DNA of 64,000 bases from Hydractinia symbiolongicarpus (taxonomy: Eukaryota; Cnidaria; Hydrozoa; Anthoathecata; Hydractiniidae): positions 16,594,001-16,658,000 of the forward strand of contig NC_079888.1 in assembly GCF_029227915.1 (NCBI RefSeq), given 5' to 3'. Both the position numbers and the translations under genes were made by a program. The notes below the pieces were generated by a model, which was not told the DNA's origin, made no database searches, and saw only the letters and a list, made by a program, of their open reading frames with translations. Of the stretch, positions 5,411 through 64,000 are shown piece after piece. The number at the start of each line of letters is the position of its first letter. Position 1 is the stretch's first letter.

Positions 5411-12532
<7,122 letters not shown>

Positions 12533-14401: not shown

Positions 14402-14414
14402 CGGTAGTTAAACA

Positions 14415-20825: not shown

Positions 20826-21040
20826 AAAAGAGCGTACACTATACACATTATACACAGCATCTTTCAAATTAATAAATCGAACAAAGGAAGGAACAAAAAA
20901 ATATCGTTTTAATAACATTTTTTAGGGATATTTCATTTTATAAGGACAAGAAAAAAAAACTGTACCGCTTTCCCTGGAACTTTATTGTCGTTCTTCTCTC
21001 AATTATACTACAAAAAACACTGTTTAAAGGATACAAAACA

Positions 21041-21106
21041 GACGCAGTGGTCAAGTGGTAAGGCGTCGTGAACCGAAGATCACCAGTTAAAACCTCGTCT
21101 GTGCCT
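21041..21106 (+). pseudogene. Array-edge tRNA-Thr remnant
   Basis: First recognisable tRNA copy. The acceptor 5' strand reads GACGCAG, several anticodon-arm bases are deleted so no seven-base loop exists, and the T loop reads CAGTTAAAACC. It is not functional. Confidence 0.85.
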
Positions 21107-22332
21107 AAATTATTTGGACGCCTTTTCCGGGCGCAGATATGCCTTTGAAGAGAAATAAGTGAAGAGATTGGATGAATTTACTGACGTATTGTCCTCGAAG
21201 TCAAAGGAAATAAACAAGACTGAATCAGCAATGGAGTGGAGAAGATTTAAGCATAAATTGCAGAAAGTTATAAAAAGTTTTATACAGGCAACTCCAAAAT
21301 TCATACATATGGAACAACACAGGAACGTATAAAATACTTTGCTTCGGTAATTTTGAACCTGACATAGGTTTACCGTGTCCTCCATTAACATTTGATCACT
21401 TGCATAAAAAGTTACGAGTGATACTGACAGAAAATGTGCCAAAGGATACAAAACAAGCGCAGTGGCCGAGTGGTAAGGCGTCGGTCTCGTAAACCAAAGA
21501 TCACGAGTTCGAACCTCGACTGTGCCTAATTTTTGTGGACGACTTTTTCGGAGTGTTCCTGACAAGTCTGCAGATATGCCTTAGAAGAGAAATAAGACAA
21601 GGGATTGGATGAAATTACCGGCGTATGGTCTTCCAAGTCAAAGGAAATAAACAGGACTGAATCAACAATGGAGTTGGGAACATCTAGGCAAAAATTGCAC
21701 AAAGTTATAAACATTTTATACAGAAAAGTCTAAATTTCCTGTAGATCAAACAACACAGCAACGTGTAAGAAACTGTGCACTATTAAATTTGAACGTGACC
21801 TAAGCTTAGCGAGTTCACTATTAATTTTGAGTACTTGTATAAAAAGTTAATAATGCTGAAAGGCGGATGGAAAATACACCAAAGGATACAACACAGGCGC
21901 AGTGGCCAAGTGGTAAGGCGTCGGTCTCGTATACAGAAAGTCACGACTTCGATCCTCGTCCGTGCCTAAGTTATATGGGTGCGTTTGCCGGAGTTTTCCA
22001 GACGTAACGTGCAGATATGACTTAGAAGTGAAAGAAGTCAAGAAATTGGACGAAACACCAGGGGTATGGTTCTCCAAGTCAAGGGAAATAAACTGGACTG
22101 AATCGGCAATGGAGTTGGGAACATCTAAGCATAAATTGCCCAAAGTTATAAACCGTTTATACAAGAAACTCCAAAATTCCTATATATCGAATAACACAGG
22201 AACGGGTAAGTTTCTTTGCACCGTTAAATTTGATTCTGACAAAGGCCTAGCGAGTTCACTATTAACGTTTGAGTGCTTGCGTGAAAAGTTAATAATGATG
22301 CGGATGGAAAATGTACCAAAGGATGCAAAACA

Positions 22333-22404
22333 GGCGCAGTGGCCAAGTGGTAAGGCGTCGGTCTAGTAAACTGAAGATCACAAGTTCGAACCTCGACTGT
22401 GCCT
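22333..22404 (+). pseudogene. tRNA-Thr-like copy with AGT anticodon (block I)
   Basis: The anticodon loop reads CTAGTAA, so the anticodon is AGT instead of CGT, still threonine. The anticodon stem TCGGT/ACTGA pairs with one G-U. The T stem ACAAG/CTCGA has two mismatches, which argues against function. Confidence 0.65.
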
Positions 22405-23208
22405 AAATTATTTGGACGACTTTTGCGGAAATTTCCTGACAAAGTGTGCAGATATGCCTTAGAAGAGAAAAAAGGCAAGGGATTGGATGAAATTTTATGG
22501 GAATGGTCCTCCAAGTCAAAGGAAATAAACAGGACTGAATCGGCAATGGGGTTGAGAAGACTTAAGCATAAAATGCACAATGTTATAAAAGGTTTTATAC
22601 AAGAAAGCCCGAAATTCCTGCAGATCAAGAAACACAACAACGTGTAAGATACTTTGCGCTATTAAATTTGAACGTAAAGTAGGATTAGCGAGTTCACTAT
22701 TAACTTTTGAGTACTTGCATAAAAAGTTAGAAATGCCGCGAATGGAAAATATACCAAAGGTTAATAAACAGGCGCAGTGGCCAAGTGGTAAGGCGTTGGT
22801 CTCGTAAACCGAAGATGACGAGTTCAAACCTCGTCTGGGCCTAAACTATATCGATGCATTTTTCGGAGTTTTCAGGACATAACGTGCAGATATGCCTTAG
22901 AAGACAAATAAGACAAGGGATTGGATGAAATTTCCGGCGTACTGTCCTCGAAGGCAAAGGAAAGAAACAGGACCGAGTCGGGAAAGAAGTTGAGAAGATT
23001 TAAGCATAAATTGCACAAAGTTATAAAAAGTTTTATACAAGAAAGCCCGAAATTCTTGTAGGTCGAACAACACGGCAACGTGTAAGATAGTTTGCGCTAT
23101 TTAATTTGAACGTGACCTAGGTTTAGCCAGTTCATTATTAACTTTTAAGTGCTTGCATAAGAAGTTAATAATGTTGCGGATGGAAGATGTACCAAAGCAT
23201 GCAAAACA

Positions 23209-23280
23209 GGCGCAGTGGCCAAGTGGTAAGGCGTCGGACTCGTAAACCGAAGATCACGAGTTCGATCCTCGTCTGTGCCT
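23209..23280 (+). pseudogene. Near-intact tRNA-Thr(CGT), anticodon stem mismatch
   Basis: All arms pair except the base pair closing the anticodon loop (A31 against A39), which opens the loop. The same change is at 32692-32763 and 43121-43192. It might still be charged; I rate it as probably impaired. Confidence 0.5.
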
Positions 23281-23645
23281 AAGTTATATGTGTGCGTTTG
23301 CCGGAGTTTTCCAGACATAACGTGCAGATATGACTTAGAAGTGAAAGAAGTCAAGAAATTGGATGAAGCACCTGGCGTATTGTTCTCCAAATCAAAGGAA
23401 ATGAACAGGACTTAATTGGCAATGGAGTGGGGAACATCTAAGCATAAATTGCACAAAGTTATAAACCCTTTATACAGGAAAGCCCGAAATTCCTGTATAT
23501 CGCATAACACTGCAACGTCTAAGACACTTTGCTTCGGTAATTTTGAAACTGACATAGGCTTAGCGAGTTCATTATTAACTTTTGATCACTTGCATAAAAA
23601 GTTAAAAATGATACAGATGGAGAATATACCAAAGGTTGCTAAACA

Positions 23646-23717
23646 GGCGCAGTGGCCAAGTGGTAAGGCGTTGGTCTCGTAAACCGAAGATCACGAGTTC
23701 GAACCTCGTCTGTGCCT
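23646..23717 (+). tRNA. tRNA-Thr(CGT)
   Basis: Seventy-two bases with a complete cloverleaf. Acceptor GGCGCAG/CTGTGCC (one G-U) with U73; D stem GCC/GGC with a loop AAGTGGTAA; anticodon stem TTGGT/ACCGA (one U-G) with loop CTCGTAA, anticodon CGT for ACG codons; T arm ACGAG/CTCGT with loop TTCGAAC. Boxes A (TGGCCAAGTGG) and B (GTTCGAACC) are canonical for pol III. CCA is not encoded, as in eukaryotes, and there is no intron. The first TTTT lies about 36 bases downstream. Confidence 0.75.
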
Positions 23718-24641
23718 AAATTATATGGATGCGTTTGCCGGAGTGTTCCAGACATAACATGCAGATATGCCTTAGAATTGAAAGAAGTCAAAAAATTGGA
23801 TGAAATTTCTGGCGGTTTGTCCTCGAAGTCAAAGGAAATAAACAGGACTGAATCGGGAAGGGAGTTGAAAAGGTTTAAGCATAAATTGCACAAAGTTATA
23901 AAAGGTTTTATGCAGGAAAGCCCGAAATTCTTGTAGGTCGAACAACACAGCAACGTGTAAGATGCTTTGCACAATTAAATTTGAACGTAAAGTAGGCTTA
24001 GCGAGTTCACTATTAACTTTTGAGTGCTTGCATAAAAAGTTAAAATGACGCGGATGGAAAATATACCAAAGGATGGAAAACAGGCGCAGTGGCCAAGTGG
24101 TAAGGCGTCGGTTTCGTAAACCGAAGATCAAGACTTCGAACCTTGTCTGTGCCTAAACTATGTGGATGCTTTTGCCGGAGTGTTCCAGACATAACATGCA
24201 GATATGCCTTAGAATTGAAAGAAGTCAAACCAAGAAGTCAAACCGAAGATCAAGACTTTGAACCTCGTCTGTGCCTAAACTATATGGATGCTTTTGGCGG
24301 AGTTTTCTGGACATAACGTGCAGATATGCCTTAGAAGAGAAGTAAGACAAGGGATTGGATGAATTTTCTGGCGTATTATTTTCGAAGTCAAAGGAAAGAA
24401 ACAGGACTGAATCGGGAAAGGAGTTGAGAAGATTTAAGCATAAAATACACAAAGTTATAAAAGTTTTATACAGGAAAGCCCGAAATTCTTGTAGATCGAA
24501 CAACACAGCAACGTGTAAGATAGTTTGCACTATTTAGTTTGATCGTGACAAAGGCTTAGCGAGTTCAATATTAACTTTTGAGTGCTTGCATAAAAAGTTA
24601 ATGATGATGCTGATGGAGTATATACAAAAGGATGCAAAACA

Positions 24642-24713
24642 GGCGCAGTGGCCAAGTGGTAAGGCGTCGGTCTCGTAAACCGAAGATCACGAGTTCGATC
24701 CTCGTCTGTGCCT
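24642..24713 (+). tRNA. tRNA-Thr(CGT)
   Basis: Complete cloverleaf with Watson-Crick anticodon stem TCGGT/ACCGA and T loop TTCGATC. It is one of the best-paired copies in the array. The spacer downstream starts AAGTTATATGGGTG. Confidence 0.78.
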
Positions 24714-25515
24714 AAGTTATATGGGTGCGTTTGCCGGAGTTTTCCAGACATAACGTGCAGATATGAGTTAGAAGAGAAAGAAGACAAGAAATTGGATGAA
24801 GCACCTGGCGTATTGTTCTCCAAATCAAAGGAAATGAACTGGACTGAATTGGCAATGGACTGGGGAACATCTAAGCATAAGGTGCACAAAGTTATAAACC
24901 TTTTATACAGGAAACTCCAAAATTCTTATATATCGAATAACACAGCAACGGGAAAGTTACTATAAAACGTTAAATTTGATCGTGACAAAAGCTTAGCGAG
25001 TTCATTGTTAACTTGTGAGTGCTTGCATAAAATGTCAATAATGATGCTGATGGGGAATATACCAAAGGTTACTAAACAGCCACAGTGGCCAAGTGGTATG
25101 GCGTCGGTTTCGTAAACCGAAGATCAAGACTTCGAACCTTTTCTGTGCCTAAACTATGTGGATGCTTTTGGCGGAGTGTTCCAGACATAACATGCAGATA
25201 TGCCTTAGAATTGAAAGAAGTCAAGAAATTGGATGAAATTTCTGGCGTATTGTCCTCGCAGTCAAAGGAAATAAACAGGACTGAATCGGGAATGGAGTTG
25301 AGAAGATTTAAGCAGAAATTACACAAAGTTGTAAACATTTTATACAGGAAACTCCAAAATTCCTATATATCGAATAACACAGCAACGGGTAAGTTACTTT
25401 ACACCGTTAAATTTGATCGTGTCAAAAGCTTAGCGAGTTCATTGTTAACTTGTGAGTGTTTGCATAAAATGATAATAATTATGCGGATGGGGAATATATC
25501 AAAGGTTACTAAACA

Positions 25516-25587
25516 GGCGCAGTGGTCAAGCGGTAAGGCGTCGGTCTCGTAAACCGAAGATCACGAGTTCGAACCTCGTCTGTGCCT
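25516..25587 (+). tRNA. tRNA-Thr(CGT)
   Basis: Complete cloverleaf. It differs by GTC in the D stem (U-G pair with GGC) and C in the D loop (AAGCGGTAA), both tolerated. T loop TTCGAAC. Confidence 0.74.
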
Positions 25588-26456
25588 AAATTATATGGAT
25601 GCGATTGCCGGAGTTTTCCAGACATAACATGCAGATATGCCTTAGAATTGAAAGAAGTCAAACCAAGAAGTCAAACCGAAGATCAAGACTTTGAACCTCG
25701 TCTGTGCCTAAACTATATGGATGCTTTTGGCGGAGTTTTCTGGACATAACGTGCAGATATGCCTTAGAAGAGAAGTAAGACTAGGGATCGGATGAATTTT
25801 CTGGCGTATTATTCTCGAAGTCAAAGGAAAGAAACAGGACTGAATCGGGAATGGAGTTGAGCAGATTTATGCATAAGTTGCACAAAGTTATAAACCTTTT
25901 ATACAGGAAACTCCAAAATTCCTATATATCGAATAACACAGCAACGGGTAAGTTACTTTGCACCGTTAAATTTGATCGTGAGAAAAGCCTAGCGAGTTCA
26001 TTGTTAACTTGTGAGTGCTTGCATAAAATGTTAATAATGATGCGAATGGGGAATATACCAAAGGTTATTAAACAGGCGCAGTGGCCAAGTGGTAAGGCGT
26101 CGGTCTCGTAAACCGAGGATCACGTCTTCGAACCTCGACTGTGCCTAAATTATGTGGACGACTTCTGCGGAAATTTCCGGACATAACGTGCAGATATGCC
26201 TGAGAAGAGAAATAAGACAAGGGATTGGATGAATTTTTCGGGGTATGGTCCTCCAAGTCCAACAAAATAAACAGGACTGAATCGGGAATGGAGTTGAGAA
26301 GATTTAAGCATTAATTGCACAAAGTTATAAAATGTTTTATGCAGGAAAGCGCGAAATTCTTTTAGATCGAACAGCACGGCAAAGTGTAAGTTACTTTGCA
26401 TTACTTAGATTGAACGTGACCTAGGCCTAGCGCGTTCGCTATTAACTTTTTTTTCG

Positions 26457-26496
26457 CGTAAACCGAAGATCACGAGTTCGATCCTCGTCTGTGCCT
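26457..26496 (+). pseudogene. Truncated tRNA: 3' half only, behind a T8 tract
   Basis: Eight T residues (26447-26454) and CG are followed by the tRNA from inside the anticodon loop (CGTAAACCGA) to its 3' end, with an intact T arm. The acceptor 5' strand, D arm and 5' anticodon stem are deleted. This truncated form is one of the three monomers in each trimer (also near 28.12, 29.79, 31.01, 36.89, 47.32, 51.42, 52.65, 53.87, 55.10 kb). Confidence 0.85.
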
Positions 26497-27298
26497 AAGT
26501 TATGTGGGTGCGTTTGCCGGAGTTTTCCACACATAACATGCAGATATGCCTTAGAATTGTAAGAAGTCAAAAAATTGGATGAAAGTTCTGGCGTATTGTC
26601 CTCGAAGTCAAAGGAATTAACAGGACTGGATCGGGAATGGAGTTGAGAAGATTTAAGCATAAAATGCACAAAGTTATAAAACGTTTTATACAAGAAAGTC
26701 CGAAATTCCTGTAGATCAAAAAACACAGCAACGTGTAAGATACTTTGCACTATTTAGTTTGAACGTGACCTAGGCTTAGCAAGTTCATTATTAACTTTTG
26801 AGTAGTTGAATAAAAAGTTTAAAATGATACGGATGGAAAATATACCAAAGATTACTAAACAGGCGCAGTGGCCAAGTGGTATGGCGTCGGTTTCGTAAAC
26901 CGAAGATCAAGACTTCGAACCTCGTCTGTGCCTAAACTATATGGATGCTTTTGGCGGAGTGTTCCAGACATAACATGCAGATATGCCTTAGAATTGAAAG
27001 AAGTCAAAAAATTGGATGAAATTTCTGGCGCATTGTCCTCGAAGTCAAAGGAAATAACAGGACTGAATCGGGAATGGAGTTGAGAAGATTTAAGCATAAA
27101 ATTCCCAAAGTTATAAAACGTTTTATACAAGAAAGTCCGAAATTCCTGTAGATCAAAAAACACAGCAACGTGTAAGATACTTTACACCGTTAAATTTGAT
27201 CGTGACAAAAGCTTAGCGAGTTCATTGTTAACTTGTGAGTGTTTGCATAAAATGATAATAATGATGCGAATGGGGAATATACCAAAGGTTGCTAAACA

Positions 27299-27370
27299 GG
27301 CGCGGTGGCCAAGTGGTAAGGCGTCGGTCTCGTAAACCGAAGATCACGAGTTCGAACCTCGTCTGTGCCT
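27299..27370 (+). tRNA. tRNA-Thr(CGT), G6-U67 variant
   Basis: Complete cloverleaf in which acceptor position 6 is G and pairs with U67. All other arms match the array consensus. Confidence 0.73.
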
Positions 27371-29396
27371 AAATTATATGGATGCGTTTGCCGGAGTATT
27401 CCAGACATAACATGCAGTTATGCATTAGAATTGAAAGAAGTCCAGAAGTTTGATGACATTTCTGGCGTATTGTCTTTGAAGTCAAAGGAAATAAACAGGA
27501 CTGAATCGGGAATGGAGTTGAGAAGATTTAGGCAGCAATTACACAAACTTATAAACATTTTATACAGGAAACTCCAAAATTCCTATATATCGAATAACAC
27601 AGCAACGGGTTAGTTACTTTGCACCGTTAAATTGGATCGTGAGAAAAGCCTAGCGAGTTCATTGTTAACTTGTGAGTGCTTGCATAAAATTTTAATAATG
27701 ATGCGGTTGGAGAATATACCAAAGGTTATTAAACAGGCGCAGTGGCCAAGTGGTAAGGCGTCGGTCTCGTAAACCGAGGATCACGTCTTCGAACCTCGAC
27801 TGTGCCTAAATTATGTGGACGACTTTTGCAGAAATTTCCGGACATAACGTGCAGATATGCCTTAGAAGAGAAATAAGACAAGGGATTGGATGATTTTTCC
27901 GGGGTATGGTCCTCCAAGTCTAAGGAAATAAACAGGACTGAATCGGGAATGGAGTTGAGAATATTTAAGCATTAATTGCACAAAGTTATAAAATGTTTTA
28001 TGCAGGAAAGCGCGAAATTCTTGTAGATCGAACAACACGGCAAAGTGTAAGTTACTTTGCATTACTTAGATTTAACGTGACCTAGGCCTAGCGCGTTTGC
28101 TATTAACTTTTTTTTCGCGAAAACCGAAGATCACGAGTTCGATCCTCGTCTGTGCCTAAGTTATGTGGGTGCGTTTGCCGGAGTTTTCCACACATAACGT
28201 GCAGATATGACTTAGAAGTGAAAGAAGTCAAGAAATTGGATGAAGCACATAGCGTATTGTTTTCCAAATCAAAGGAAATAAACAGGACTGAATCGGGAAT
28301 GGAGTTGAGCAGATTTATGCATAAGTTGCACAAAGTTATAAACCTTTTTTACAGGAAACTCCAAAATTCCTATATATCGAATAACACAGCAACGGGTAAG
28401 TTACCTTACACCTTTAAATTTGATCGTGACAAAAGCTTAGCGAGTTTATTGTTAACTTGTGAGTGCTTGTATAAAATGTTAATAATGATGCTGATGGAGT
28501 ATATACTAAAGGTTACTAAACAGGCGCAGTGGCCAAGTGGTAAGGCGTCGGTTTCGTAAACCGAAAATCAAGACTTCGAACCTCATTTGTGCCTAAACTA
28601 TATGGATGCTTTTGGCGGAGTGTTCCAGACATAACATGCAGATATGCCTTAGAATTGAAAGAAGTCAAAAAATTGGATGAAATCTCTGGCGTATTGTCCT
28701 TGAGGTCAAAGGAATTAACAGGACTGAATCGGGAATGGAGTTGAGAAGATTTAAGCATAAAATGCACAAAGTTATAAAACGTTTTATACAAGAAAGTCCG
28801 AAATTCCTGTAGCTCAAAAAACACAGCAACCTGTATGATACTTTTCACTATTTACTTTGAACGTGACCTAGGCTTAGCCAGTTCATTATTAACTTTAGAG
28901 TAGTTGAATAAAAAGTTTAAAATGATGCGGATGGAAAATATACCAAAGGTTACTAAACAGGCGCAGTGGCCAAGTGGTATGGCGTCGGTTTCGTAAACCG
29001 AAGATCAAGTCTTCGAACCCCGTCTGTGCCTAAACTATATAGATGCTTTTGGCGGAGTTTTGTGGACATAACGTGCAGACATGCCTTAGAAGAGAAATAA
29101 GACAAGAGATTGGTTAAAGTTTCCGGCGTATTGTCCTCGAAGTCAAAAGAAATAAACAGGACTGAATCGGGAATGGAGTTGAGCAGATTTAAGAATAAAA
29201 TGCACAAAGTTATAAAAAGTTTTATACAACAAGGCCGGAATTCCTGTAGATCGAACAACACAACAACGGGTAAGTTACTTTACACCGTTAAATTTGATCG
29301 TGACAAAAGCTTAGCAAGTTCATTGTTAACTTGTGAGTGTTTGCATAAAATGATAATAATGATGCGAATGGGGCATATACCAAAGGTTGCTAAACA

Positions 29397-29468
29397 GGCG
29401 CAGTAGCCAAGTGATAAGGCGTCGGTCTCGTAAACCGAAGATCACGAGTTCGAACCTCGTCTGTGCCT
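29397..29468 (+). pseudogene. Near-intact tRNA-Thr(CGT), altered D loop
   Basis: All stems pair, but the D loop reads AAGTGATAA, so the second of the conserved GG pair that contacts the T loop is A, and the A box loses its last G. The same version recurs at 30621, 39826, 41050 and 50255. Confidence 0.5.
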
Positions 29469-31815
29469 AAATTATATGGATGCGTTTGCCGGAGTGTTCC
29501 AGACATAACATGCAGATATGCATTAGAATTGAAAGAAGTCCAGAAATTTGATGACATTTCTGGCGTATTGTCCTCGAAGTCAAAGGAAATAAACAGGACT
29601 GAATCGGGAATGGAGTTGAGAAGATTTAAGCATTAATTGCACAAAGTTATAAAATGTTTTATGCAGGAAAGCGCGAAATTCTTTTAGATCGAACAGCACG
29701 GCAAAGTGTAAGTTACTTTGCATTACTTAGATTGAACGTGACCTAGGCCTAGCGCGTTCGCTATTAACTTTTTTTTCGCGTAAACCGAAGATCACGAGTT
29801 CGATCCTCGTCTGTGCCTAAGTTATGTGGGTGCGTTTGCCGGAGTTTTCCACACATAACATGCAGATATGCCTTAGAATTGAAAGAAGTCAAAAAATTGG
29901 ATGAAATCTCTGGCGTATTGTCCTTGAGGTCAAAGGAATTAACAGGACTGAATCGGGAATGGAGTTGAGAAGATTTAAGCATAAAATGCACAAAGTTATA
30001 AAACGTTTTATACAAGAAAGTCCGAAATTCCTGTAGCTCAAAAAACACAGCAACCTGTATGATACTTTTCACTATTTACTTTGAACGTGACCTAGGCTTA
30101 GCCAGTTCATTATTAACTTTAGAGTAGTTGAATAAAAAGTTTAAAATGATGCGGATGGAAAATATACCAAAGGTTACTAAACAGGCGCAGTGGCCAAGTG
30201 GTATGGCGTCGGTTTCGTAAACCGAAGATCAAGTCTTCGAACCTCGTCTGTGCCTAAACTATATAGATGCTTTTGGCGGAGTTTTGTGGACATAACGTGC
30301 AGACATGCCTTAGAAGAGAAATAAGACAAGAGATTGGTTAAAGTTTCCGGCGTATTGTCCTCGAAGTCAAAAGAAATAAACAGGACTGAATCGGGAATGG
30401 AGTTGAGCAGATTTAAGAATAAAATGCACAAAGTTATAAAAAGTTTTATACAACAAGGCCGGAATTCCTGTAGATCGAACAACACAGCAACGGGTAAGTT
30501 ACTTTACACCGTTAAATTTGATCGTGACAAAATCTTAGCAAGTTCATTGTTAACTTGTGAGTGTTTGCATAAAATGATAATAATGATGCGAATGGGGCAT
30601 ATACCAAAGGTTGCTAAACAGGCGCAGTAGCCAAGTGATAAGGCGTCGGTCTCGTAAACCGAAGATCACGAGTTCGAACCTCGTCTGTGCCTAAATTATA
30701 TGGATGCGTTTGCCGGAGTGTTCCAGACATAACATGCAGATATGCATTAGAATTGAAAGAAGTCCAGAAATTTGATGACATTTCTGGCGTATTGTCCTCG
30801 AAGTCAAAGGAAATAAACAGGACTGAATCGGGAATGGAGTTGAGAAGATTTAAGCATTAATTGCACAAAGTTATAAAATGTTTTATGCAGGAAAGCGCGA
30901 AATTCTTTTAGATCGAACAGCACGGCAAAGTGTAAGTTACTTTGCATTACTTAGATTGAACGTGACCTAGGCCTAGCGCGTTCGCTATTAACTTTTTTTT
31001 CGCGTAAACCGAAGATCACGAGTTCGATCCTCGTCTGTGCCTAAGTTATGTGGGTGCGTTTGCCGGAGTTTTCCACACATAACATGCAGATATGCCTTAG
31101 AATTGAAAGAAGTCAAAAAATTGGATGAAAGTTCTGGCGTATTGTCCTCGAAGTCAAAGGAATTAACAGGACTGGATCGGGAATGGAGTTGAGAAGATTT
31201 AAGCATAAAATGCACAAAGTTATAAAACGTTTTATACAAGAAAGTCTGAAATTCCTGTAGATCAAAAAACACAGCAACGTGTAAGATACTTTGCACTATT
31301 TAGTTTGAACGTGACCTAGGCTTAGCAAGTTCATTATTAACTTTTGAGTAGTTGAATAAAAAGTTTAAAATGATACGGATGGAAAATATACCAAAGATTA
31401 CTAAACAGGCGCAGTGGCCAAGTGGTATGGCGTCGGTCTCGTAAACCGAGGATCACGTCTTCGAACCTCGACTGTGCCTAAATTATGTGGACGACGTTTG
31501 CGGAAATTTCCGGACATAACGAGCAGATATGCCTTAGAAAAGTAATTAGACAAGGGATTGGATGAATTTTCCGGGGTATTGTCCTCCAAGTCAAAGGAAA
31601 TAAACAGGACTGAATCGGGAATGGAGTTGAGAAGATTTAAGCATTAATTGCACAAAGTTATAAAATTTTTTATGCAGGAAAGCGCGAAATTCTTGTAGAT
31701 CGAACAGCACGGCAAAGTGTAAGTTACTTTTACCGTGTCCTCCATTAACATTTGATCACTTGCATAAAAAGTTACGAGTGATACTGACAGAAAATGTGCC
31801 AAAGGATACAAAACA

Positions 31816-31887
31816 AGCGCAGTGGCCGAGTGGTAAGGCGTCGGTCTAGTAAACTGAAGATCACAAGTTCGAACCTCGACTGTGCCT
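31816..31887 (+). pseudogene. tRNA-Thr-like copy with AGT anticodon (block II)
   Basis: Hybrid of two monomers: the 5' half, with A at position 1 and GCCGAGTGG in the D arm, derives from the 21456 type and the 3' half from the 22333 type, joined inside the tRNA near AAGGCGTCGGTCT. Position 1 no longer pairs with C72. Confidence 0.65.
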
Positions 31888-33128: not shown

Positions 33129-33200
33129 GGCGCAGTGGCCAAGTGGTAAGGCGTTGGTCTCGTAAACCGAAGATCACGAGTTCGAACCTCGTCTGTGCCT
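33129..33200 (+). tRNA. tRNA-Thr(CGT)
   Basis: Block II counterpart of the 23646 copy (offset 9,483), identical in the tRNA, with the TTGGT anticodon stem. Confidence 0.75.
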
Positions 33201-33565
33201 AAATTATATGGATGCGTTTGCCGGAGTGTTCCAGACATAACATGCAGATATGCCTTAGAATTGAAAGAAGTCAAAAAATTGGATGAAATTTCTGGCGGTT
33301 TGTCCTCGAAGTCAAAGGAAATAAACAGGACTGAATCGGGAAGGGAGTTGAAAAGGTTTAAGCATAAATTGCACAAAGTTATAAAAGGTTTTATGCAGGA
33401 AAGCCCGAAATTCTTGTAGGTCGAACAACACAGCAACGTGTAAGATGCTTTGCACAATTAAATTTGAACGTAAAGTAGGCTTAGCGAGTTCACTATTAAC
33501 TTTTGAGTGCTTGCATAAAAAGTTAAAATGACGCGGATGGAAAATATACCAAAGGATGGAAAACA

Positions 33566-33637
33566 GGCGCAGTGGCCAAGTGGTAAGGCGTCGGTCTCGT
33601 AAACCGAAGATCACGAGTTCGATTCTCGTCTGTGCCT
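33566..33637 (+). tRNA. tRNA-Thr(CGT)
   Basis: Complete cloverleaf with T loop TTCGATT. Block I has instead a defective hybrid here, since this copy lies at the start of the ~946 bp present only in blocks II and III. Confidence 0.74.
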
Positions 33638-34002: not shown

Positions 34003-34074
34003 GGCGCAGTGGCTAAGTGGTAAGGCGTCGGTCTCGTAAACCGAAGATCACAAGTTCGATCCTCGTCTGTGCCT
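34003..34074 (+). pseudogene. Near-intact tRNA-Thr(CGT), T-stem mismatch
   Basis: The D stem GCT/GGC pairs with a G-U. The T stem ACAAG/CTCGT has a single A-C mismatch in its centre. The copy at 44432-44503 is the same. This region is absent from block I. Confidence 0.5.
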
Positions 34075-53400: not shown

Positions 53401-54895
53401 AAGCTTAGCGAGTTCATTGTTAACTTGTGAGTGTTTGCATAAAATGATATTAATGATGCGGATGGAGAATATACCAAAGGTTGCTAATTAGGCGCAGTGG
53501 CCAAGTGGTAAGACGTTGGTCTCGTAAACCGAAGATCACGTCTTCGAACCACGTCTGTGCCTAAATTATGTGGACGACTTTTGCGGAAATTTCCGGACAT
53601 AACGAGCAGATATGCCTTAGAAAAGTAATTAGACAAGGGATTGGATGAATTTTCCGGGGTATTGTCCTCCAAGTCAAAGGAAATAAACAGGACTGAATCG
53701 GGAATGGAGTTGAGAAGATTTAAGCATTAATTGCACAAAGTTATAAAATGTTTTATGCAGGAAAGCGCGAAATTCTTGTAGATCGAACAACACGGCAAAG
53801 TGTAAGTTACTTTGCATTACTTAGATTGAACGTGACCTAGGCCTAGCGCGATCGCTATTAACTTTTTTTTCGCGTAAACCGAAGATCACGAGTTCGATCC
53901 TCGTCTGTGCCTAAGTCATGTGGGTGCGTTTGCCGGAGTTTTCCACACATAACGTGCAGATATGACTTAGAAGTGAAAGAAGTCAAGAAATTGGATGAAG
54001 CACCTAGCGTATTGTTCTCCAAATCAAAGGAAATAAACAGGACTGAATCGGGAATGGAGTTGACCAGATTTATGCATAAGTTGCACAAAGTTATAAACCT
54101 TTTATACAGGAAACTCCAAAATTCCTATATATCGAATAACACAGCAACGGGTAGGTTACTTTACTTCTTTAAATTTGATCGTGACAAAAGCTTAGCGAGT
54201 TCATTGTTAACTTGTGAGTGCTTGTATAAAATGTTAATAATGATGCTGATGGAGTATATACCAAAGGTTACTAAACAGGCGCAGTGGCCAAGTGGTAAGG
54301 CGTCGGTTTCGTAAACCGAAAATCAAGACTTCGAACCTCGTCTGTGCCTAAACTATATGGATGCTTTTGGCGGAGTTTCCTGGACATAACGTGCTGATAT
54401 GCCTTAGAAGAGAAATAAGACAAGAGATTGGTTAAAGTTTCCGGCGTATTGTCCTCGAAGTCAAAAGAAGTAAACAGGACTGAATCGGGAATGGAGTTGA
54501 GCAAATTTAAGCATAAAATGCACAAAGTTATAAAAAGTTTTATACAAGAAGGCCCGAAATTCCTGTAGATCGAACAACACACCAACGGGTAAGTTACTTT
54601 ACACCGTTGAATTTGATCGTGACAAAAGCTTAGCGAGTTCATTGTTAACTTGTGAGTGTTTGCATAAAATGATATTAATGATGCGGATGGAGAATATACC
54701 AAAGGTTGCTAATTAGGCGCAGTGGCCAAGTGGTAAGACGTTGGTCTCGTAAACCGAAGATCACGTCTTCGAACCACGTCTGTGCCTAAATTATGTGGAC
54801 GACTTTTGCGGAAATTTCCGGACATAACATGCAGATATGCCTTAGAAGAGAAATAAGACAAGGGATTGGATGAATTGTTCGGGTTATGGTCGTCC
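50435..54895 (+). repeat. 4,461-bp block, first copy
   Basis: Made of ~1,224-bp trimers (starts near 51035, 52259, 53484, 54709) plus a partial one. The same order recurs 4,461 bp later. It overlaps the end of block III. It contains no intact tRNA. Confidence 0.85.
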
Positions 54896-57800
54896 AAGTC
54901 AAAGGAAATAAACAGGACTGAATCGGGAATGGAGTTGAGAAGATTTAAGCATTAATTGCACAAAGTTATAAAATGTTTTATGCAGGAAAGCGCGAAATTC
55001 TTTTAGATCGAACAGCACGGCAAAGTGTAAGTTACTTTGCATTACTTAGATTGAACGTGACCTAGGCCTAGCGCGTTCGCTATTAACTTTTTTTTCGCGT
55101 AAACCGAAGATCACGAGTTCGATCCTCGTCTGTGCCTAAGTTATGTGGGTGCGTTTGCCGGAGTTTTCCACACATAACATGCAGATATGCCTTAGAATTG
55201 AAAGAAGTCAAAAAATTGGATGAAAGTTCTGGCGTATTGTCCTCGAAGTCAAAGGAATTAACAGGACTGGATCGGGAATGGAGTTGAGAAGATTTAAGCA
55301 TAAAATGCACAAAGTTATAAAACGTTTTATACAAGAAAGTCTGAAATTCCTGTAGATCAAAAAACACAGCAACGTGTAAGATACTTTGCACTATTTAGTT
55401 TGAACGTGACCTAGGCTTAGCAAGTTCATTATTAACTTTTGAGTAGTTGAATAAAAAGTTTAAAATGATACGGATGGAAAATATACCAAAGATTACTAAA
55501 CAGGCGCAGTGGCCAAGTGGTATGGCGTCGGTCTCGTAAACCGAGGATCACGTCTTCGAACCTCGACTGTGCCTAAATTATGTGGACGACGTTTGCGGAA
55601 ATTTCCGGACATAACGAGCAGATATGCCTTAGAAAAGTAATTAGACAAGGGATTGGATGAATTTTCCGGGGTATTGTCCTCCAAGTCAAAGGAAATAAAC
55701 AGGACTGAATCGGGAATGGAGTTGAGAAGATTTAAGCATTAATTGCACAAAGTTATAAAATTTTTTATGCAGGAAAGCGCGAAATTCTTGTAGATCGAAC
55801 AGCACGGCAAAGTGTAAGTTACTTTGCATTACTTAGATTGAACGTGACCTAGGCCTAGCGCGATCGCTATTAACTTTTTTTTCGCGTAAATCGAAGATCA
55901 CGAGTTTGATCCTCGTCTGTGCCTAAGTCATGTGGGTGCGTTTGCCGGAGTTTTCCACACATAACGTGCAGATATGACTTAGAAGTGAAAGAAGTCAAGA
56001 AATTGGATGAAGCACCTAGCGTATTGTTCTCCAAATCAAAGGAAATAAACAGGACTGAATCGGGAATGGAGTTGAGCAGATTTATGCATAAGTTGCACAA
56101 AGTTATAAACCTTTTATACAGGAAACTCCAAAATTCCTATATATCGAATAACACAGCAACGGGTAAGTTACTTTACATCTTTAAATTTGATCGTGACAAA
56201 AGCTTAGCGAGTTCATTGTTAACTTGTGAGTGCTTGTATAAAATGTTAATAATGATGCTGATGGAGTATATACCAAAGGTTACTAAACAGGCGCAGTGGC
56301 CAAGTGGTATGGCGTCGGTTTCGTAAACCGAAGATCAAGTCTTCGAACCTCGTCTGTGCCTAAACTATACAGATGCTTTTGGCGGAGTTTTGTGGACATA
56401 ACGTGCAGACATGCCTTAGAAGAGAAATAAGACAAGAGATTGGTTAAAGTATCCGGCGTATTGTCCTCGAAGTCAAAAGAAATAAACAGGACTGAATCGG
56501 GAATGGAGTTGAGAGGATTTAAGCAGAAATTACACAAAGTTATAAACATTTTATACAGGAAACTCCAAAATTCCTATATATCGAATAACACAGCAACGGG
56601 TAAGTTACTTTGCACCGTTAAATTTGATCGTGAGAAAAGCCTAGCGAGTTCATTGTTAACTTGTGAGTGCTTGCATAAAATGTTAATAATAATGCGGATG
56701 GAGAATATACCAAATGTTATTAAACAGGCGCAGTGGCCAAGTGGTATGGCGTCGGTCTCGTAAACCGAGGATCACGTCTTCGAACCTCGACTGTGCCTAA
56801 ATTATGTGGACGACGTTTGCGGAAATTTCCGGACATAACGAGCAGATATGCCTTAGAAAAGTAATTAGACAAGGGATTGGATGAATTTTCCGGGGTATTG
56901 TCCTCCAAGTCAAAGGAAATAAACAGGACTGAATCGGGAATGGAGTTGAGAAGATTTAAGCATTAATTGCACAAAGTTATAAAATGTTTTATGCAGGAAA
57001 GCGCGAAATTCTTGTAGATCGAACAACACGGCAAAGTGTAAGTTACTTTGCATTACTTAGATTGAACGTGACCTAGGCCTAGCGCGATCGCTATTAACTT
57101 TTTTTTCGCGTAAACCGAAGATCACGAGTTCGATCCTCGTCTGTGCCTAAGTCATGTGGGTGCGTTTGCCGGAGTTTTCCACACATAACGTGCAGATATG
57201 ACTTAGAAGTGAAAGAAGTCAAGAAATTGGATGAAGCACCTAGCGTATTGTTTTCCAAATCAAAGGAAATAAACAGGACTGAATCGGGAATGGAGTTGAG
57301 CAGATTTATGCATAAGTTGCACAAAGTTATAAACCTTTTATACAGGAAACTCCAAAATTCTTATATATCGAATAACACAGCAACGGGTAAGTTACTTTAC
57401 ATCTTTAAATTTGATCGTGACAAAAGCTTAGCGAGTTCATTGTTAACTTGTGAGTGCTTGTATAAAATGTTAATAATGATGCTGATGGAGTATATACCAA
57501 AGGTTACTAAACAGGCGCAGTGGCCAAGTGGTAAGGCGTCGGTTTCGTAAACCGAAAATCAAGACTTCGAACCTCGTCTGTGCATAAACTATATGGATGC
57601 TTTTGGCGGAGTTTTCTGGACATAACGTGCTGATATGCCTTAGAAGAGAAATAAGACAAGAGATTGGTTAAAGTTTCCGGCGTATTGTCCTCGAAGTCAA
57701 AAGAAGTAAACAGGACTGAATCGGGAATGGAGTTGAGCAAATTTAAGCATAAAATGCACAAAGTTATAAAAAGTTTTATACAAGAAGGCCCGAAATTCCT

Positions 57801-58862
57801 GTAGATCGAACAACACAGCAACGGGTAAGTTACATTACACCGTTGAATTTGATCGTGACAAAAGCTTAGCGAGTTCATTGTTAACTTGTGAGTGTTTGCA
57901 TAAAATGATATTAATGATGCGGATGGAGAATATACCAAAGGTTGCTAATTAGGCGCAGTGGCCAAGTGGTAAGACGTTGGTCTCGTAAACCGAAGATCAC
58001 GTCTTCGAACCACGTCTGTGCCTAAATTATGTGGACGACTTTTGCGGAAATTTCCGGACATAACGAGCAGATATGCCTTAGAAAAGTAATTAGACAAGGG
58101 ATTGGATGAATTTTCCGGGGTATTGTCCTCCAAGTCAAAGGAAATAAACAGGACTGAATCGGGAATGGAGTTGAGAAGATTTAAGCATTAATTGCACAAA
58201 GTTATAAAATGTTTTATGCAGGAAAGCGCGAAATTCTTGTAGATCGAACAACACGGCAAAGTGTAAGTTACTTTGCATTACTTAGATTGAACGTGACCTA
58301 GGCCTAGCGCGATCGCTATTAACTTTTTTTTCGCGTAAACCGAAGATCACGAGTTCGATCCCCGTCTGTGCCTAAGTCATGTGGGTGCGTTTGCCGGAGG
58401 TTTCCACACATAACGTGCAGATATGACTTAGAAGTGAAAGAAGTCAAGAAATTGGATGAAGCACCTAGCGTATTGTTCTCCAAATCAAAGGAAATAAACA
58501 GGACTGAATCGGGAATGGAGTTGACCAGATTTATGCATAAGTTGCACAAAGTTATAAACCTTTTATACAGGAAACTCCAAAATTCCTATATATCGAATAA
58601 CACAGCAACGGGTAGGTTACTTTACTTCTTTAAATTTGATCGTGACAAAAGCTTAGCGAGTTCATTGTTAACTTGTGAGTGCTTGTATAAAATGTTAATA
58701 ATGATGCTGATGGAGTATATACCAAAGGTTACTAAACAGGCGCAGTGGCCAAGTGGTAAGGCGTCGGTTTCGTAAACCGAAAATCAAGACTTCGAACCTC
58801 GTCTGTGCCTAAACTATATGGATGCTTTTGGCGGAGTTTTCTGGACATAACGTGCTGATATG
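54896..58862 (+). repeat. 4,461-bp block, second copy (right end replaced)
   Basis: Follows the first copy closely until about 58.86 kb, where the sequence changes to a different monomer subtype (bases GCGTTAGAAGAAAAATAAG instead of GCCTTAGAAGAGAAATAAG). Confidence 0.82.
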
Positions 58863-61800
58863 CGTTAGAAGAAAAATAAGACCAGCGATTGGATGAATTT
58901 TCCGGCGTATTTTCCTCGAAGTCAAGGGAAAGAAAAAGGACTGAATCGGGAAAGGAGTTGAGAAGATTTAAGCATAAAATGCACAAAGTTATAAAAAGTT
59001 TTATACAGGAAAGCCCAATATTCTTGTAGATGGAACAACACGGCAACGTGTAAGATAGTTTGCACTATTAAAGTTGAACGTGACGAAGGCTTAACGAGTT
59101 CATTATTAACTTTTGAGTGCTTGCATAAAAAGTTAAAGATACTGCGGATGGAAAATATTCCAAAGGTTACTAAACAGGCGAAGTGGCCAAGTGGTAAGGC
59201 GTCGGTCTCGTAAACCGAAGATCAAGACTTCGAACTTCGTCTGTGCCTAAACTATATGGATGCTTTTGCCGGAGTTTTCCGGAAATAACTTGCAGATATG
59301 CCTGAGAAGAGAAATAAGACAAGGGATTGGATGAATTTTCCGGCGTATGGTCCTCCAAGTCAAAGGAAATAAACAGAACAGAATCGGCGATGGAGTTGGG
59401 AACATCTAAGCAAAAGTTGCACAAAGTTATAAACATTTTATACAGGAAATTCTGTAATTCCTATATATTGAATAACACAGCAACGTGTAAGTTACTTTGC
59501 ACCGTTAAATTTGATCGTGACAAAGGCTTAGCGAGTTCAGTATTAACTTGTGAGTGCTTGCATAAAATTTTAATAATGATTTAGGTGGAAAATATACCAA
59601 AGGTTTCTAAACAGGCGCAGTGGCCAAGTGGTAAGGAGTCGGTCTCGTAAACCAAAGTTCACGAGTTCGATCCTCGTCTGTGCCTAAGTTATATGGGGGC
59701 GTTTGCCGGAGTTTTCCAGACATAACATGCAGATATGACTTAGAAGTGAAAGAAGTCAAGAAATTGGATGAAACACCAGGGGTATTGTTCTCCAAATCAA
59801 AGGAAATAAACAAGACTGAATTGGCAATGGACTGGGGAACATCTAAGCATAAATTGCGCAAAGTTTTAAACCGTTTATACAGGAAACTCCAAAATTCCTT
59901 CATATCGAACAACACTGCAACGTGTAAGATACTTTGCACTATTTAGTTTGAACGTGACCTAGTCTTTCACTATTAACGTTTGAGTGCTTGCGTAAAAAGT
60001 AAAAAATGATGCGGATGGAAAATGTACCAAAGGATGCAAAACAGGCGCAGTGCCCAAGTGGTAAGGCGTCGGTCTCGTAAACCGGAGATTACGAGTTCGA
60101 ACATCGTCTGTGCCTCAATTTTGTGGACGACTTTTGCGGAATTTTCCTGACAAAGCGTGCAGATGTGCCTTAGAAGAGAAATAAGACAAGGGATTGGATG
60201 AAATTTCAGGGGTATGGTCCTCCAAGTCAAAGGAAATAAACAGGACTGAATCGGCAATGGTGTTAAGAAGATTTGAGCAGAAAATGCACAAAGTAGTAAA
60301 ACGTTTTACCCAAGAAAGCCCAAAATTCCTGTAGATCAAAAAACACAGCAACGTGTAAGATACTTTGCACTATTTAATTTGAACGTAAAGTAGGTTTAGC
60401 GCGTTCACTATTAACTTTTAAGTACTTTCCTAATAAAAATAAAAAGTTTTATACAGGAACGCCCGAAATTCTTGTAGATAGAACAACACGGCAACGTGTA
60501 TAATACTTTGCACTATTTAGTTTGAACGTGACCTAGGCTTAGCGAGTTTACTATTAACTTTTGAGTGCTTGCATAAAAAGTTATTAATGATGCGGATGGA
60601 AGATATACCAAAGGATGCAAAACAGTCGGAGTGGCCAAGTGGTAAGGCGTCAATCTCGTAAACCGAAGATCACGAGTTCGATCCTCGTCTGTGGCTAAGT
60701 TTTATGGATGCGTTTGCCGGAGCTTTCCAGACATAACGTGCAGATATGACTTAGAAGTGAAAGAAGATGGATGAAACACCAGGGGTATGGTTCTCCAAGT
60801 CAAGTGAAATAAACAGGACTGAATCGGCATTGGAGTGGGGAACATCAAAGCATAACTTGCACAAAGTTATAAACCCTTTATTCAGGAAAGCCCGAAATTC
60901 CTGTATATCGCATAAAACGGCAACAGCTAAGACACTTTGCTTCGGTAATTTTGAACCTGACATAGGTTTACTGAGTTCTCCATTAACTTTTGTGTGCTTT
61001 CATAAAAAGTTAATAATGATGCGGATGGGAAATATGCCAAAGGTTGCAAAACAGGCGCAGTGACAAAGTGGTAAGGCGTTGGTCTCGTAAACCGAAGATG
61101 ACGAGTTCAAACCTCGTCTGTGCCTAAACTATATGGATGCTTTTGGGCGGAGTTTTCTGGACATAACGTGCAGATATGCGTTAGAAGAAAAATAAGACCA
61201 GGGATTGGATGAAATTTACGGCGGCGGAGATTTCCGGACATAACGTGCAGATATGCCTTAGAAGAGAAATAAGACAAGGGATTGGATGAATTTTCCGACG
61301 TATTTTCCTCGAAGTCAAGGGAAAGAAAAAGGACTGAATCGGGAAAGGAGTTGAGAAGATTTAAGCATAAAATGCACAAAGTTATAAAAAGTTTTATACA
61401 GGAAAGCCCAATATTCTTGTAGATGGAACAACACGGCAACGTGTAAGATAGTTTGCACTATTAAAGTTGAACGTGACGAAGGCTTAACGAGTTCACTATT
61501 AACTTTTGAGTGCTTGCATAAAAAGTTAAAGATACTGCGGATGGAAAATATTCCAAAGGTTACTAAACAGGCGAAGTGGCCAAGTGGTAAGGCGTCGGTC
61601 TCGTAAACCGAAGATCAAGACTTCGAACTTCGTCTGTGCCTAAACTATATGGATGCTTTTGCCGGAGTTTTCCGGAAATAACTTGCAGATATGCCTGAGA
61701 AGAGATATAAGACAAGGGATTGGATGAATTTTCCGGCGTATGGTCCTCCAAGTCAAAGGAAATAAACAGAACAGAATCGGCGATGGAGTTGGGAACATCT

Positions 61801-64000
61801 AAGCAAAAGTTGCACAAAGTTATAAACATTTTATACAGGAAATTCTGTAATTCCTATATATTGAATAACACAGCAACGTGTAAGTTACTTTGCACCGGTA
61901 AATTTGATCGTGACAAAGGTTTAGCGAGTTCAGTATTAACTTGTGAGTGCTTGCATAAAATTTTAATAATGATTTAGATGGAAAATATACCAAAGGTTTC
62001 TAAACAGGCGCAGTGGCCAAGTGGTAAGGCGTAGGTCTCGTAAACCGAAAACCATGAGTTCGATCCTCGTCTGTGGCTAAGTTATATGGACGACTTTTGC
62101 GGAGATTTCCGGACATAACGTGGAGATATGCCTTCGAAGGGAAATAAGACAAGGGATTGGATGAATTTTCCGGCGTGTGGTGCTCAAAGTTAAAGGAAAT
62201 AAACAGGACTGAATCGGGAGTGGAGTTGAGAAGATTTAAGCGTAAAATGCACAAAGTTATAAAAAGTTTTATACAGGAAAGCCCGAAGTTCTTGTAGATC
62301 GAACAACACGGCAACGTGTAAGATAGTTTGCGCTATTTAGTTTGAACGTGACCTAGGCTTAGCGAGTTTACTATTAACTTTTGAGTGCTTGCATAAAAAG
62401 TTATTAATGATGCGGATGGAAGATATACCAAAGGATGCAAAACAGTCGGAGTGGCCAAGTGGTAAGGCGTCGATCTCGTAAACCGAAGATCACGAGTTCG
62501 ATCCTCGTCTGTGGCTAAGTTTTATGGATGCGTTTGCCGGAGCTTTCCAGACATAACGTGCAGATATGACTTAGAAGTGAAAGAAGATGGATGAAACACC
62601 AGGGGTATGGTTCTCCAAGTCAAGTGAAATAAACAGGACTGAATCGGCATTGGAGTGGGGAACATCAAAGCATAACTTGCACAAAGTTATAAACCCTTTA
62701 TTCAGGAAAGCCCGAAACTCTTGTATATCGCATAACACGGCAACAGCTAAGACACTTTGCTTCGGTAATTTTGAACCTGACATAGGTTTACTGAGTTCTC
62801 CATTAACTTTTGTGTGCTTGCATAAAAAGTTAATAATGATGCGGATGGGAAATATGCCAAAGGTTGCAAAACAGGCGCAGTGACAAAGTGGTAAGGCGTT
62901 GGTCTCGTAAACCGAAGATGACGAGTTCAAACCTCGTCTGTGCCTAAACTATATGGATGCTTTTGGGCGGAGTTTTCTGGACATAACGTGCAGATATGCG
63001 TTAGAAGAAAAATAAGACCAGCGATTGGATGAATTTTCCGGCGTATTTTCCTCGAAGTCAAGGGAAAGAAAAAGGACTGAATCGGGAAAGGAGTTGAGAA
63101 GATTTAAGCATTAAATGCACAAAGTTATAAAAAGTTTTATACAGGAAAGCCCAATATTCTTGTAGATGGAACAACACGGCAACGTGTAAGATAGTTTGCA
63201 CTATTAAAGTTGAACGTGACGAAGGCTTAACGAGTTCACTATTAACTTTTGAGTGCTTGCATAAAAAGTTAAAGATACTGCGGATGGAAAATATTCCAAA
63301 GGTTACTAAACAGGCGAAGTGGCCAAGTGGTAAGGCGTCGGTCTCGTAAACCGAAGATCAAGACTTCGAACTTCGTCTGTGCCTAAACTATATGGATGCT
63401 TTTGCCGGAGTTTTCCGGAAATAACTTGCAGATATGCCTGAGAAGAGAAATAAGACAAGGGATTGGATGAATTTTCCGGCGTATGGTCCTCCAAGTCAAA
63501 GGAAATAAACAGAACAGAATCGGCGATGGAGTTGGGAACATCTAAGCAAAAGTTGCACAAAGTTATAAACATTTTATACAGGAAATTCTGTAATTCCTAT
63601 ATATTGAATAACACAGCAACGTGTAAGTTACTTTGCACCGTTAAATTTGATCGTGACAAAGGCTTAGCGAGTTCAGTATTAACTTGTGAGTGCTTGCATA
63701 AAATTTTAATAATGATTTAGGTGGAAAATATACCAAAGGTTTCTAAACAGGCGCAGTTGCCAAGTGGTAAGGAGTCGGTCTCGTAAACCAAAGTTCACGA
63801 GTTCGATCCTCGTCTGTGCCTAAGTTATATGGGGGTGTTTGCCGGAGTTTTCCAGACATAACATGCAGATATGACTTAGAAGTGAAAGAAGTCAAGAAAT
63901 TGGATGAAACACCAGGGGTATTGTTCTCCAAATCAAAGGAAATAAACAAGACTGAATTGGCAATGAACTGGGGAACATCTAAGCATAAATTGCGCAAAGT
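58863..64000 (+). repeat. Right-hand diverged monomer subfamily
   Basis: Monomers differ from the central ones and repeat with their own steps: the segment at 59170 recurs at 61563 and 63306, and that at 60625 recurs at 62447. All tRNA parts seen here carry stem defects, for example GGCGAAG acceptors or GGAG in the D arm. The array runs off the window. Confidence 0.85.

What the first reader, a model, noticed from the sequence alone, without database searches (positions are those of the whole stretch)
21025..64000. A satellite with higher-order repeats whose monomer is a threonine tRNA gene
More than 42 kb is a single-orientation tandem array of ~438-bp monomers, each a tRNA-Thr(CGT) sequence plus spacer, organised as monomer, ~1,224-bp trimer, and 4,461- and 10,429-bp blocks. 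Nested periodicity of this kind is known from centromeric alpha satellite. tRNA gene clusters are known, and so are tRNA-derived SINEs, but a tRNA satellite with this hierarchy would be remarkable. Each monomer brings pol III A and B boxes, so the array could recruit TFIIIC/TFIIIB densely and act in centromere identity, insulation or nuclear positioning (inference).
Basis: partly seen in the sequence, partly recalled or inferred. Interest (0 to 1): 0.9.

Follow-up and report, generated by a model that had tools for sequence, protein, structure and literature searches.

The report
206-kb array of decaying threonine-tRNA genes
A jellyfish relative carries hundreds of head-to-tail copies of a threonine-tRNA gene in one chromosomal block, many of them damaged; such tRNA gene arrays are already reported from this animal group, so this is a large, fully assembled example of gene birth and decay rather than a new kind of chromosome element.

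Summary
From 21,026 to the window end, tRNA-Thr-bearing ~437-bp units run head to tail on one strand, with a 1,224-bp trimer and blocks of 10,429 and 4,461 bp. The window shows only the left fifth: the array runs 206 kb (window coordinates 21,026-227,070; 461 units, all +). An exact 34-nt tRNA core occurs 147 times in the genome; 145 lie in the stretch that holds this array, and one of the other two is a solitary canonical gene. A second array, tRNA-Arg/Lys on the opposite strand, starts about 2.4 kb beyond.

Corrections: the higher order is a set of separate local duplications of different sizes, not one array-wide higher-order repeat (first 141 kb). By strict counting most copies are impaired: 116 of 442 full tRNAs keep all stem pairs, 182 of 442 match both promoter boxes, though ARAGORN still accepts 324. 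A flanking gene places the source in Hydrozoa; tRNA tandem arrays are published for Hydractinia (PMC11067881). Best reading: an amplified tRNA-Thr gene array in birth-and-death, with a functional minority.

The parts
21026..64000 (+). Left part of the tRNA-Thr tandem array (106 tRNA-bearing units in the window; array continues to window coordinate 227,070)
21026..21039 (+). Left edge of the array: homology begins 14 bp before the first (shortened) tRNA copy
22332..31814 (+). First copy of the 10.4-kb block (9,483 bp, two monomers short)
31815..42243 (+). Second copy of the 10,429-bp block
42244..51364 (+). Third, incomplete copy of the 10,429-bp block
50634..55094 (+). First copy of the 4,461-bp block
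   Evidence: 97.2% to the next copy
55095..59555 (+). Second copy of the 4,461-bp block
30183..31406 (+). Example of the 1,224-bp trimer (437 + 380 + 407 bp); the 407-bp unit has only tRNA positions 31-74, so no A box
24082..24640 (+). Example of the other deletion unit (158 + 401 bp; tRNA positions about 37-73 only in the second piece)
33565..33638 (+). Best-scoring tRNA-Thr(CGT) sequence of the window (70.7 bits, shared with its block copy at 43,994; all stem pairs, both boxes)
5790..11494 (-). Flanking thioredoxin(-glutathione) reductase gene (nine exon pieces recognised; approximate span), used to place the organism

Best explanation
It is a tandem array of RNA-polymerase-III tRNA-Thr(CGT) genes in a hydrozoan, built from a ~437-bp unit (74-bp tRNA plus 363-bp spacer) by repeated unequal exchange. 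Larger blocks were duplicated locally and recently, which makes the nested periods. Most copies have since decayed to some degree (broken T stem, incomplete B box, deletions, changed anticodons). A minority remains intact and is probably transcribed into ordinary tRNA-Thr. Shown here: the anatomy, extent, near-exclusive single location of exact copies of the tRNA core, block duplications, decay, and slower change of the tRNA than of the spacer. Inferred: unequal exchange as the mechanism, transcription of intact copies, and that keeping a functional subset is why the tRNA part changes at half the spacer rate. No centromeric or insulator role is needed.
For: 206 kb, 461 units, all +; edges 14 bp before and ~10 bp after a tRNA, as expected if exchange acted between tRNA copies. 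145 of 147 genome-wide exact core matches lie in the fetched stretch with the array; one solitary canonical tRNA-Thr(CGT) sits on C4 in unrelated flanks. Several separate block duplications of different sizes at 97-99.8%, while monomers at 102-162 kb average 86.3% identity (136 monomers). Decay: 116 of 442 full tRNAs with all 20 pairs, 182 of 442 with both boxes, 376 of 442 read CGT. tRNA diverges 5.6% from consensus against 10.9% for spacer; intact in stems, boxes and anticodon 18.4% observed against 1.7% expected at the spacer rate (397 monomers). 0 of 291 spacer windows of 74 nt are as little diverse as the tRNA (95 representatives). Neighbouring Arg/Lys array of 506-bp units, 92% identity. 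Same genome organisation published for Hydractinia.
Against: No expression data. Stem counting is strict: ARAGORN accepts 324 copies (56, 205, 63), so the share of true pseudogenes is uncertain. The constraint is uneven: over the array T stem and full B-box match are hardly above the spacer rate (0.47 against 0.42; 0.57 against 0.50), which is odd if selection for tRNA function explains the rest. Tested element by element, only the A box (P=0.014) and the next seven bases (P=0.024) fall below 0.05; acceptor, anticodon stem and anticodon do not. By parsimony on the window monomers the A-box signal is P=0.023. All these units are related, so P values are approximate.
Confidence: 0.8

Rival explanations
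1. Inert satellite: the array no longer makes tRNA. It persists by exchange alone, and the lower divergence of the tRNA part is a leftover of past function or of gene conversion centred on tRNA sequences.
For: 326 of 442 full copies lack at least one stem pair; T stem and full B-box match near the spacer rate over the array; T-arm haplotypes recur in scattered units, as exchange would give; even copies with a broken T stem keep an invariant A box (12 representatives), which conversion could do.
Against: 79 of 442 full copies keep all stems and both boxes; intact copies are about ten times the neutral expectation (18.4% against 1.7%).
Confidence: 0.3
2. Chromatin element: the array acts as a TFIIIC/TFIIIB platform for insulation, nuclear positioning or centromere identity.
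For: High density of tRNA-like sequences over 206 kb; A-box pattern in 332 of 442 full copies; T-loop core TTCGA less diverse than spacer (P=0.008, P=0.020, P=0.053); B box somewhat above expectation in the window (0.53 against 0.41); a second tRNA array next to it on the other strand; a boundary role is proposed for the human 1q23.3 tRNA repeat.
Against: The full B box, the main TFIIIC contact (recalled), is matched in 242 of 442 copies and hardly above the neutral expectation over the array; the trimer amplified A-box-less units; no array-wide higher-order repeat in the part examined.
Confidence: 0.07
3. Tandemised tRNA-derived SINE: the unit is a SINE whose head is tRNA-Thr and whose body is the 363-bp spacer.
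For: Tandem repeats derived from tRNA-headed SINEs exist (squamates, limpet PcH-sat).
Against: No simple-repeat tail or poly(A) between units (sequence); no copy of the consensus in the 21 kb to the left; 145 of 147 exact cores genome-wide in this stretch. The spacer itself was not searched genome-wide.
Confidence: 0.05
4. Assembly artefact: the 10.4-kb and other near-identical blocks are false duplications of alleles or mis-joined reads.
For: Block copies are 98.7-99.8% identical, within what alleles could show.
Against: The copies lie exactly in tandem, no N in the stretch, the first copy differs by two monomers, and several independent nests exist. The Hydractinia authors argued against artefact for their tRNA arrays from independent assemblies.
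Confidence: 0.05

Closest known systems
ncRNA tandem arrays of Hydractinia echinata and H. symbiolongicarpus (PMC11067881; section 14 read; passages)
   Same: Hydrozoan; [quoted passage not shown]
   Different: The section and passages read do not describe nested blocks, decay, or a 200-kb single-isotype array; its supplementary tables could not be read, so this array may be listed there.
tRNA arrays of Phytophthora infestans (PMC9584435; passages)
   Same: Monomeric and multimeric tandem arrays, e.g. 271 tRNA-Cys in a 513-nt unit, and a Thr(CGT)-Trp-Ser array; unequal crossing-over proposed.
   Different: Oomycete; monomeric arrays on one chromosome nearly identical, dimeric and trimeric ones more diverse; nested blocks not mentioned in the passages seen.
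Maize tRNA satellite tRNASAT_ZM (PMC10335936; passages)
   Same: 91.95-kb array called a tRNA satellite, on one chromosome arm.
   Different: Plant; unit and state of the tRNA not seen here.
Human 1q23.3 tRNA VNTR (PMC4041453; passages)
   Same: tRNA genes in a tandem repeat with copy-number variation.
   Different: 7.3-kb GC-rich unit that binds CTCF and holds several tRNA genes; units 98% identical.
Amphibian Pol III tandem repeats: newt PolIII/TAN, Xenopus OAX, Rana/polIII (summarised in PMC10702118, section 3 read; passages)
   Same: Tandem repeats with a tRNA-like part.
   Different: Rana tRNA likeness only 64% over 64 nt; origin from SINEs debated; vertebrates.
Nematostella and teleost tDNA clusters (PMC2888827; abstract and passages)
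   Same: Cnidarian with more than 17,000 tDNAs, 89% clustered, clusters of fifty and more.
   Different: Neighbours in Nematostella mostly of mixed isotype.

Membership tests
Tandem tRNA gene array (Hydractinia type) | Evenly spaced head-to-tail copies of one tRNA gene, tens to hundreds | tested here: met
   461 units, all +; 397 of the 460 intervals run between full units at 425-445 bp
Tandem tRNA gene array (Hydractinia type) | Spacers homologous between units, several hundred nt | tested here: met
   363-bp spacer; monomers at 102-162 kb 86.3% mean identity, 136 monomers
Tandem tRNA gene array (Hydractinia type) | Copies are predicted functional tRNA genes | tested here: inconclusive
   116 of 442 full copies keep all stem pairs, 79 of 442 also both boxes; ARAGORN accepts 324 copies
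Tandem tRNA gene array (Hydractinia type) | Transcribed by RNA polymerase III | not testable with these tools
   No RNA data
Satellite DNA | Long non-coding head-to-tail array | tested here: met
   206 kb; no codon periodicity in the differences among 20 window monomers
Satellite DNA | Heterochromatic, centromeric or telomeric location | not testable with these tools
   C14 16.6-16.8 Mb of 24.93 Mb; gene-bearing left flank
Alpha-satellite-type higher-order repeat | Divergent monomers in fixed order, blocks near identical | tested here: met
   Representative monomers 17% apart; 10.4-kb blocks 98.7-99.8%
Alpha-satellite-type higher-order repeat | One higher-order unit repeated many times over the array | tested here: not met
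   Several local nests of different size with few copies (first 141 of 206 kb)
tRNA-derived SINE | Dispersed copies | tested here: inconclusive
   145 of 147 exact tRNA cores in one stretch speaks against it; spacer and divergent copies not searched genome-wide (not scored)
tRNA-derived SINE | Simple-repeat or poly(A) tail | tested here: not met
   Units join without a tail (read from the sequence)
tRNA-derived SINE | Target-site duplications | not tested
   No dispersed copy was in hand
TFIIIC-bound extra or insulator site | Conserved B box | tested here: inconclusive
   Full match 0.57 observed against 0.50 expected over the array, 0.53 against 0.41 in the window; TTCGA core less diverse than spacer (borderline)
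Centromere | CENP-A chromatin | not testable with these tools
   No chromatin data

The most novel reading that the evidence does not exclude
The array is kept for a product other than translation-competent tRNA: selection keeps the 5' part of the tRNA (A box/D arm above all, with acceptor and anticodon stems) while the T stem drifts, even in copies whose T stem is broken (A box invariant in 12 representatives). It would then be a 200-kb source of tRNA-Thr 5' fragments or of aberrant Pol III transcripts, lying beside a second, opposite-strand Arg/Lys array in a tRNA-dedicated chromosome domain.
Probability: 0.08. Interest if true: 0.75.

Novelty: new member of a known kind. Interest (0 to 1): 0.38.

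Why it matters
It gives one fully assembled 206-kb locus where tRNA gene amplification, local block duplication and decay can be read unit by unit, next to a more uniform array of other tRNAs. That makes birth-and-death of tRNA arrays testable in a hydrozoan. It also cautions that tRNA-finder counts in such genomes can include many impaired copies.

Tried and rejected
Coding origin of the spacer: a long frame (about 145 codons) is open in the consensus, but differences show no codon periodicity (0.185/0.167/0.176, 20 representatives); rejected. Compensatory evolution of stems: 3 of 20 pairs with a change on both sides, reached by 71 of 500 shuffles; cells with such change 19 of 500, pair types 133 of 500, covariation score 4 of 500, cells paired (90.8% against 89.7%) 1 of 500; 32 of the 33 distinct full tRNAs were given. 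Weak, so active upkeep of stems is not shown this way. Folding single tRNAs gave z -1.6 to -2.4 (five sequences); uninformative. Exact 43-nt tRNA pattern in viral contigs and genome contigs: 0. Copia ORF homologues: 9 proteins among 7,991 scored, none with a name; no taxon. Ten paper searches showed in their listings no animal paper on a tRNA-Thr satellite with nested blocks; only open-licence PMC was searched and two listings were capped (20 of 200 papers; 10 of 22). A genome-wide count of tRNA arrays (family RF00005) was asked repeatedly and never answered. Count differences: partial units are 24 when the window is searched alone and 19 in the long stretch, because E-values scale with length. 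Rows dropped: stem counts leave out partial units, and one search also the shortened first tRNA at 21,040 (one search keeps it); searches use only full units of about normal length (in one search also 380- and 408-bp units) and, where said, representatives. Rfam was run on the window and on 6 of 26 fetched stretches. ARAGORN ran on 10-kb pieces, so tRNAs cut by piece ends are missed; a few Thr-array units are called Ala, Val or Lys. Anticodon letters for indel-bearing tRNAs are approximate.
Full report
What is there. From 21,026 to 64,000 the window is a head-to-tail array on the + strand. ARAGORN reports 56 tRNA-Thr genes, Rfam 81 tRNA matches, nhmmer 106 tRNA-bearing units, 82 full and 24 partial. 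The unit is 437/438 bp: a 74-bp tRNA and a 363-bp spacer. The consensus covers 99.7% of the array part of the window and has no copy in the 21 kb to its left. There is no N in the window.

Hierarchy. Two deletions, each with constant junction lengths, shape the units: 380+407 bp (the second piece starts at tRNA position 31, so it lacks the A box) and 158+401 bp. The 1,224-bp trimer is 437+380+407 bp. Copies of the 10,429-bp block are 98.7-99.8% identical and the 4,461-bp pair 97.2%. Fifty normal-length window monomers fall into 20 clusters at 97%; representatives (of 19 clusters at 94%) differ by 17% on average. In the first 141 kb, further nests have periods of 16,370, 4,370, 4,600 and 3,931 bp, each at its own place. 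This is recent local block duplication, not one higher-order repeat spread over the array; the last part (165-227 kb) was not examined for blocks.

Beyond the window. The window is C14:16,594,001-16,658,000 of a 480.9-Mb assembly in 76 contigs. Fetched neighbouring stretches show that the array runs to window coordinate 227,070: 206 kb, 461 units, all +, with one 3.77-kb interruption at 162,051 that begins with an (AAT)n run, and two identical 230-bp insertions. The left edge lies 14 bp before a tRNA and the right edge about 10 bp after one, which fits amplification by exchange between tRNA copies (inference). A 34-nt tRNA core occurs 147 times in the genome, all in one orientation; 145 are in the fetched stretch with the array. 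One of the remaining two is a solitary tRNA-Thr(CGT) on C4, 97% identical over the tRNA only, in unrelated flanks, 65.8 bits; the other was not located. Divergent copies elsewhere and dispersed spacers are not excluded, because the DNA search was not scored.

Neighbour. About 2.4 kb past the array a second tRNA array starts on the minus strand: tRNA-Arg(TCT) and tRNA-Lys(TTT) units of about 506 bp, with two tRNA-Ser(GGA) and two unassigned calls. In the fetched part nhmmer finds 95 units and ARAGORN makes 95 calls, with one 17-kb gap; 92 monomers average 92% identity, and the tRNA is less than half as variable as the spacer (0.039 against 0.087). Its most variable tRNA position is 37 of the 76-mer, the middle of the anticodon (that this change separates TCT from TTT is read from the sequences).

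State of the genes. In the window 19 of 81 full tRNAs keep all 20 stem pairs, 69 match the A-box pattern, 38 the B-box pattern, 27 both (patterns recalled). Over the array: 116, 332, 242 and 182 of 442; 79 keep all stems and both boxes. ARAGORN is more lenient: 324 calls in the array (56, 205 and 63). The tRNA diverges from consensus half as much as the spacer (5.6% against 10.9%; 397 monomers), and 0 of 291 spacer windows are as little diverse (95 representatives). If tRNAs had mutated at each unit's spacer rate, 1.7% would be intact in stems, boxes and anticodon; 18.4% are (15.2% against 1.5% in 145 representatives). Acceptor, D and anticodon stems and the A box are above expectation; over the array the T stem (0.47 against 0.42) and the full B box (0.57 against 0.50) hardly are. 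Results that cut the other way: in the 51 window monomers T stem and B box stand higher above expectation (0.45 against 0.32; 0.53 against 0.41), and the T-loop core TTCGA is less diverse than spacer (P=0.020, 0.008, 0.053). Element by element only the A box (P=0.014) and the following seven bases (P=0.024) fall below 0.05. Units with a broken T stem still show an invariant A box (12 representatives). Units are related, so these tests are approximate; by parsimony on the window alone the A-box signal is P=0.023.

Organism. The left flank holds a thioredoxin(-glutathione) reductase gene. Among the 120 listed of 7,810 matches the closest named are Clytia hemisphaerica (72%) and Hydra vulgaris (69%); an unnamed contig gives 94%. 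So the source is a hydrozoan (inference). The assembly size resembles H. symbiolongicarpus HSymV2.0 (482.9 Mb, 84 sequences; PMC10411563, passages), a hint, not an identification.

Known or new. [quoted passage not shown] Similar arrays or tRNA-bearing satellites are known in P. infestans, maize, human, Nematostella and amphibians; Arabidopsis has a mostly silent tRNA-Ser/Tyr cluster (PMC12308677, abstract and passages), and zebrafish has repetitive tRNA clusters on chromosome 4 (PMC11417395, passages). What I did not find in the passages read is the nested block structure with heavy decay; the supplement of the Hydractinia paper was not readable here.

Mechanism. Best supported: unequal exchange in a tRNA gene array under birth-and-death, with a functional minority. 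The TFIIIC-platform reading is weakened, not excluded, by the often incomplete B box and by amplification of A-box-less units. The centromere reading is untested. The uneven decay, with a weak T stem but a kept 5' part, is the one feature without a firm explanation; gene conversion centred on the 5' part, past selection, or use of a 5' product would each fit.

Noticed in passing
C14:16,823,508 to at least 16,887,734 (loci L019-L025; window coordinates about 229,500-293,700): A second tRNA array on the minus strand, ~506-bp unit, mixing tRNA-Arg(TCT) and tRNA-Lys(TTT) bodies that differ at the middle anticodon base; 95 units by nhmmer and 95 ARAGORN calls (two Ser, two unassigned), with a 17-kb gap without hits.
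   Followed up: partly
L026:5094-5166 (C4:6,490,094-6,490,166): A solitary canonical tRNA-Thr(CGT) gene with unrelated flanks, a candidate for the ordinary functional gene or the seed.
   Followed up: partly
window coordinates 162,051-165,815 and 78,502-78,731 / 94,872-95,101: The array is interrupted by a 3.77-kb insert beginning with (AAT)n, and by two identical 230-bp inserts beginning with (TAT)n.
   Followed up: no
14412-17668 (+): Copia-like retrotransposon ORFs: Pfam finds only an integrase core in the first and nothing in the second (which looks RNase-H-like by recall); no reverse-transcriptase domain in the two ORFs given, whereas listed relatives of the first carry one.
   Followed up: no
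20188-20425, with further decayed copies by eye to about 20780: ~111-bp tandem repeat just left of the array.
   Followed up: no
T arms of both arrays: In both tRNA arrays the T stem is among the most variable parts of the tRNA (Thr: pi 0.23 in its 5' strand; Arg/Lys: positions 51, 53, 62, 64). No explanation tested.
   Followed up: partly
21026-64000: CpG observed/expected is 1.12 in the array against 0.86 in the left flank, no sign of CpG decay.
   Followed up: no
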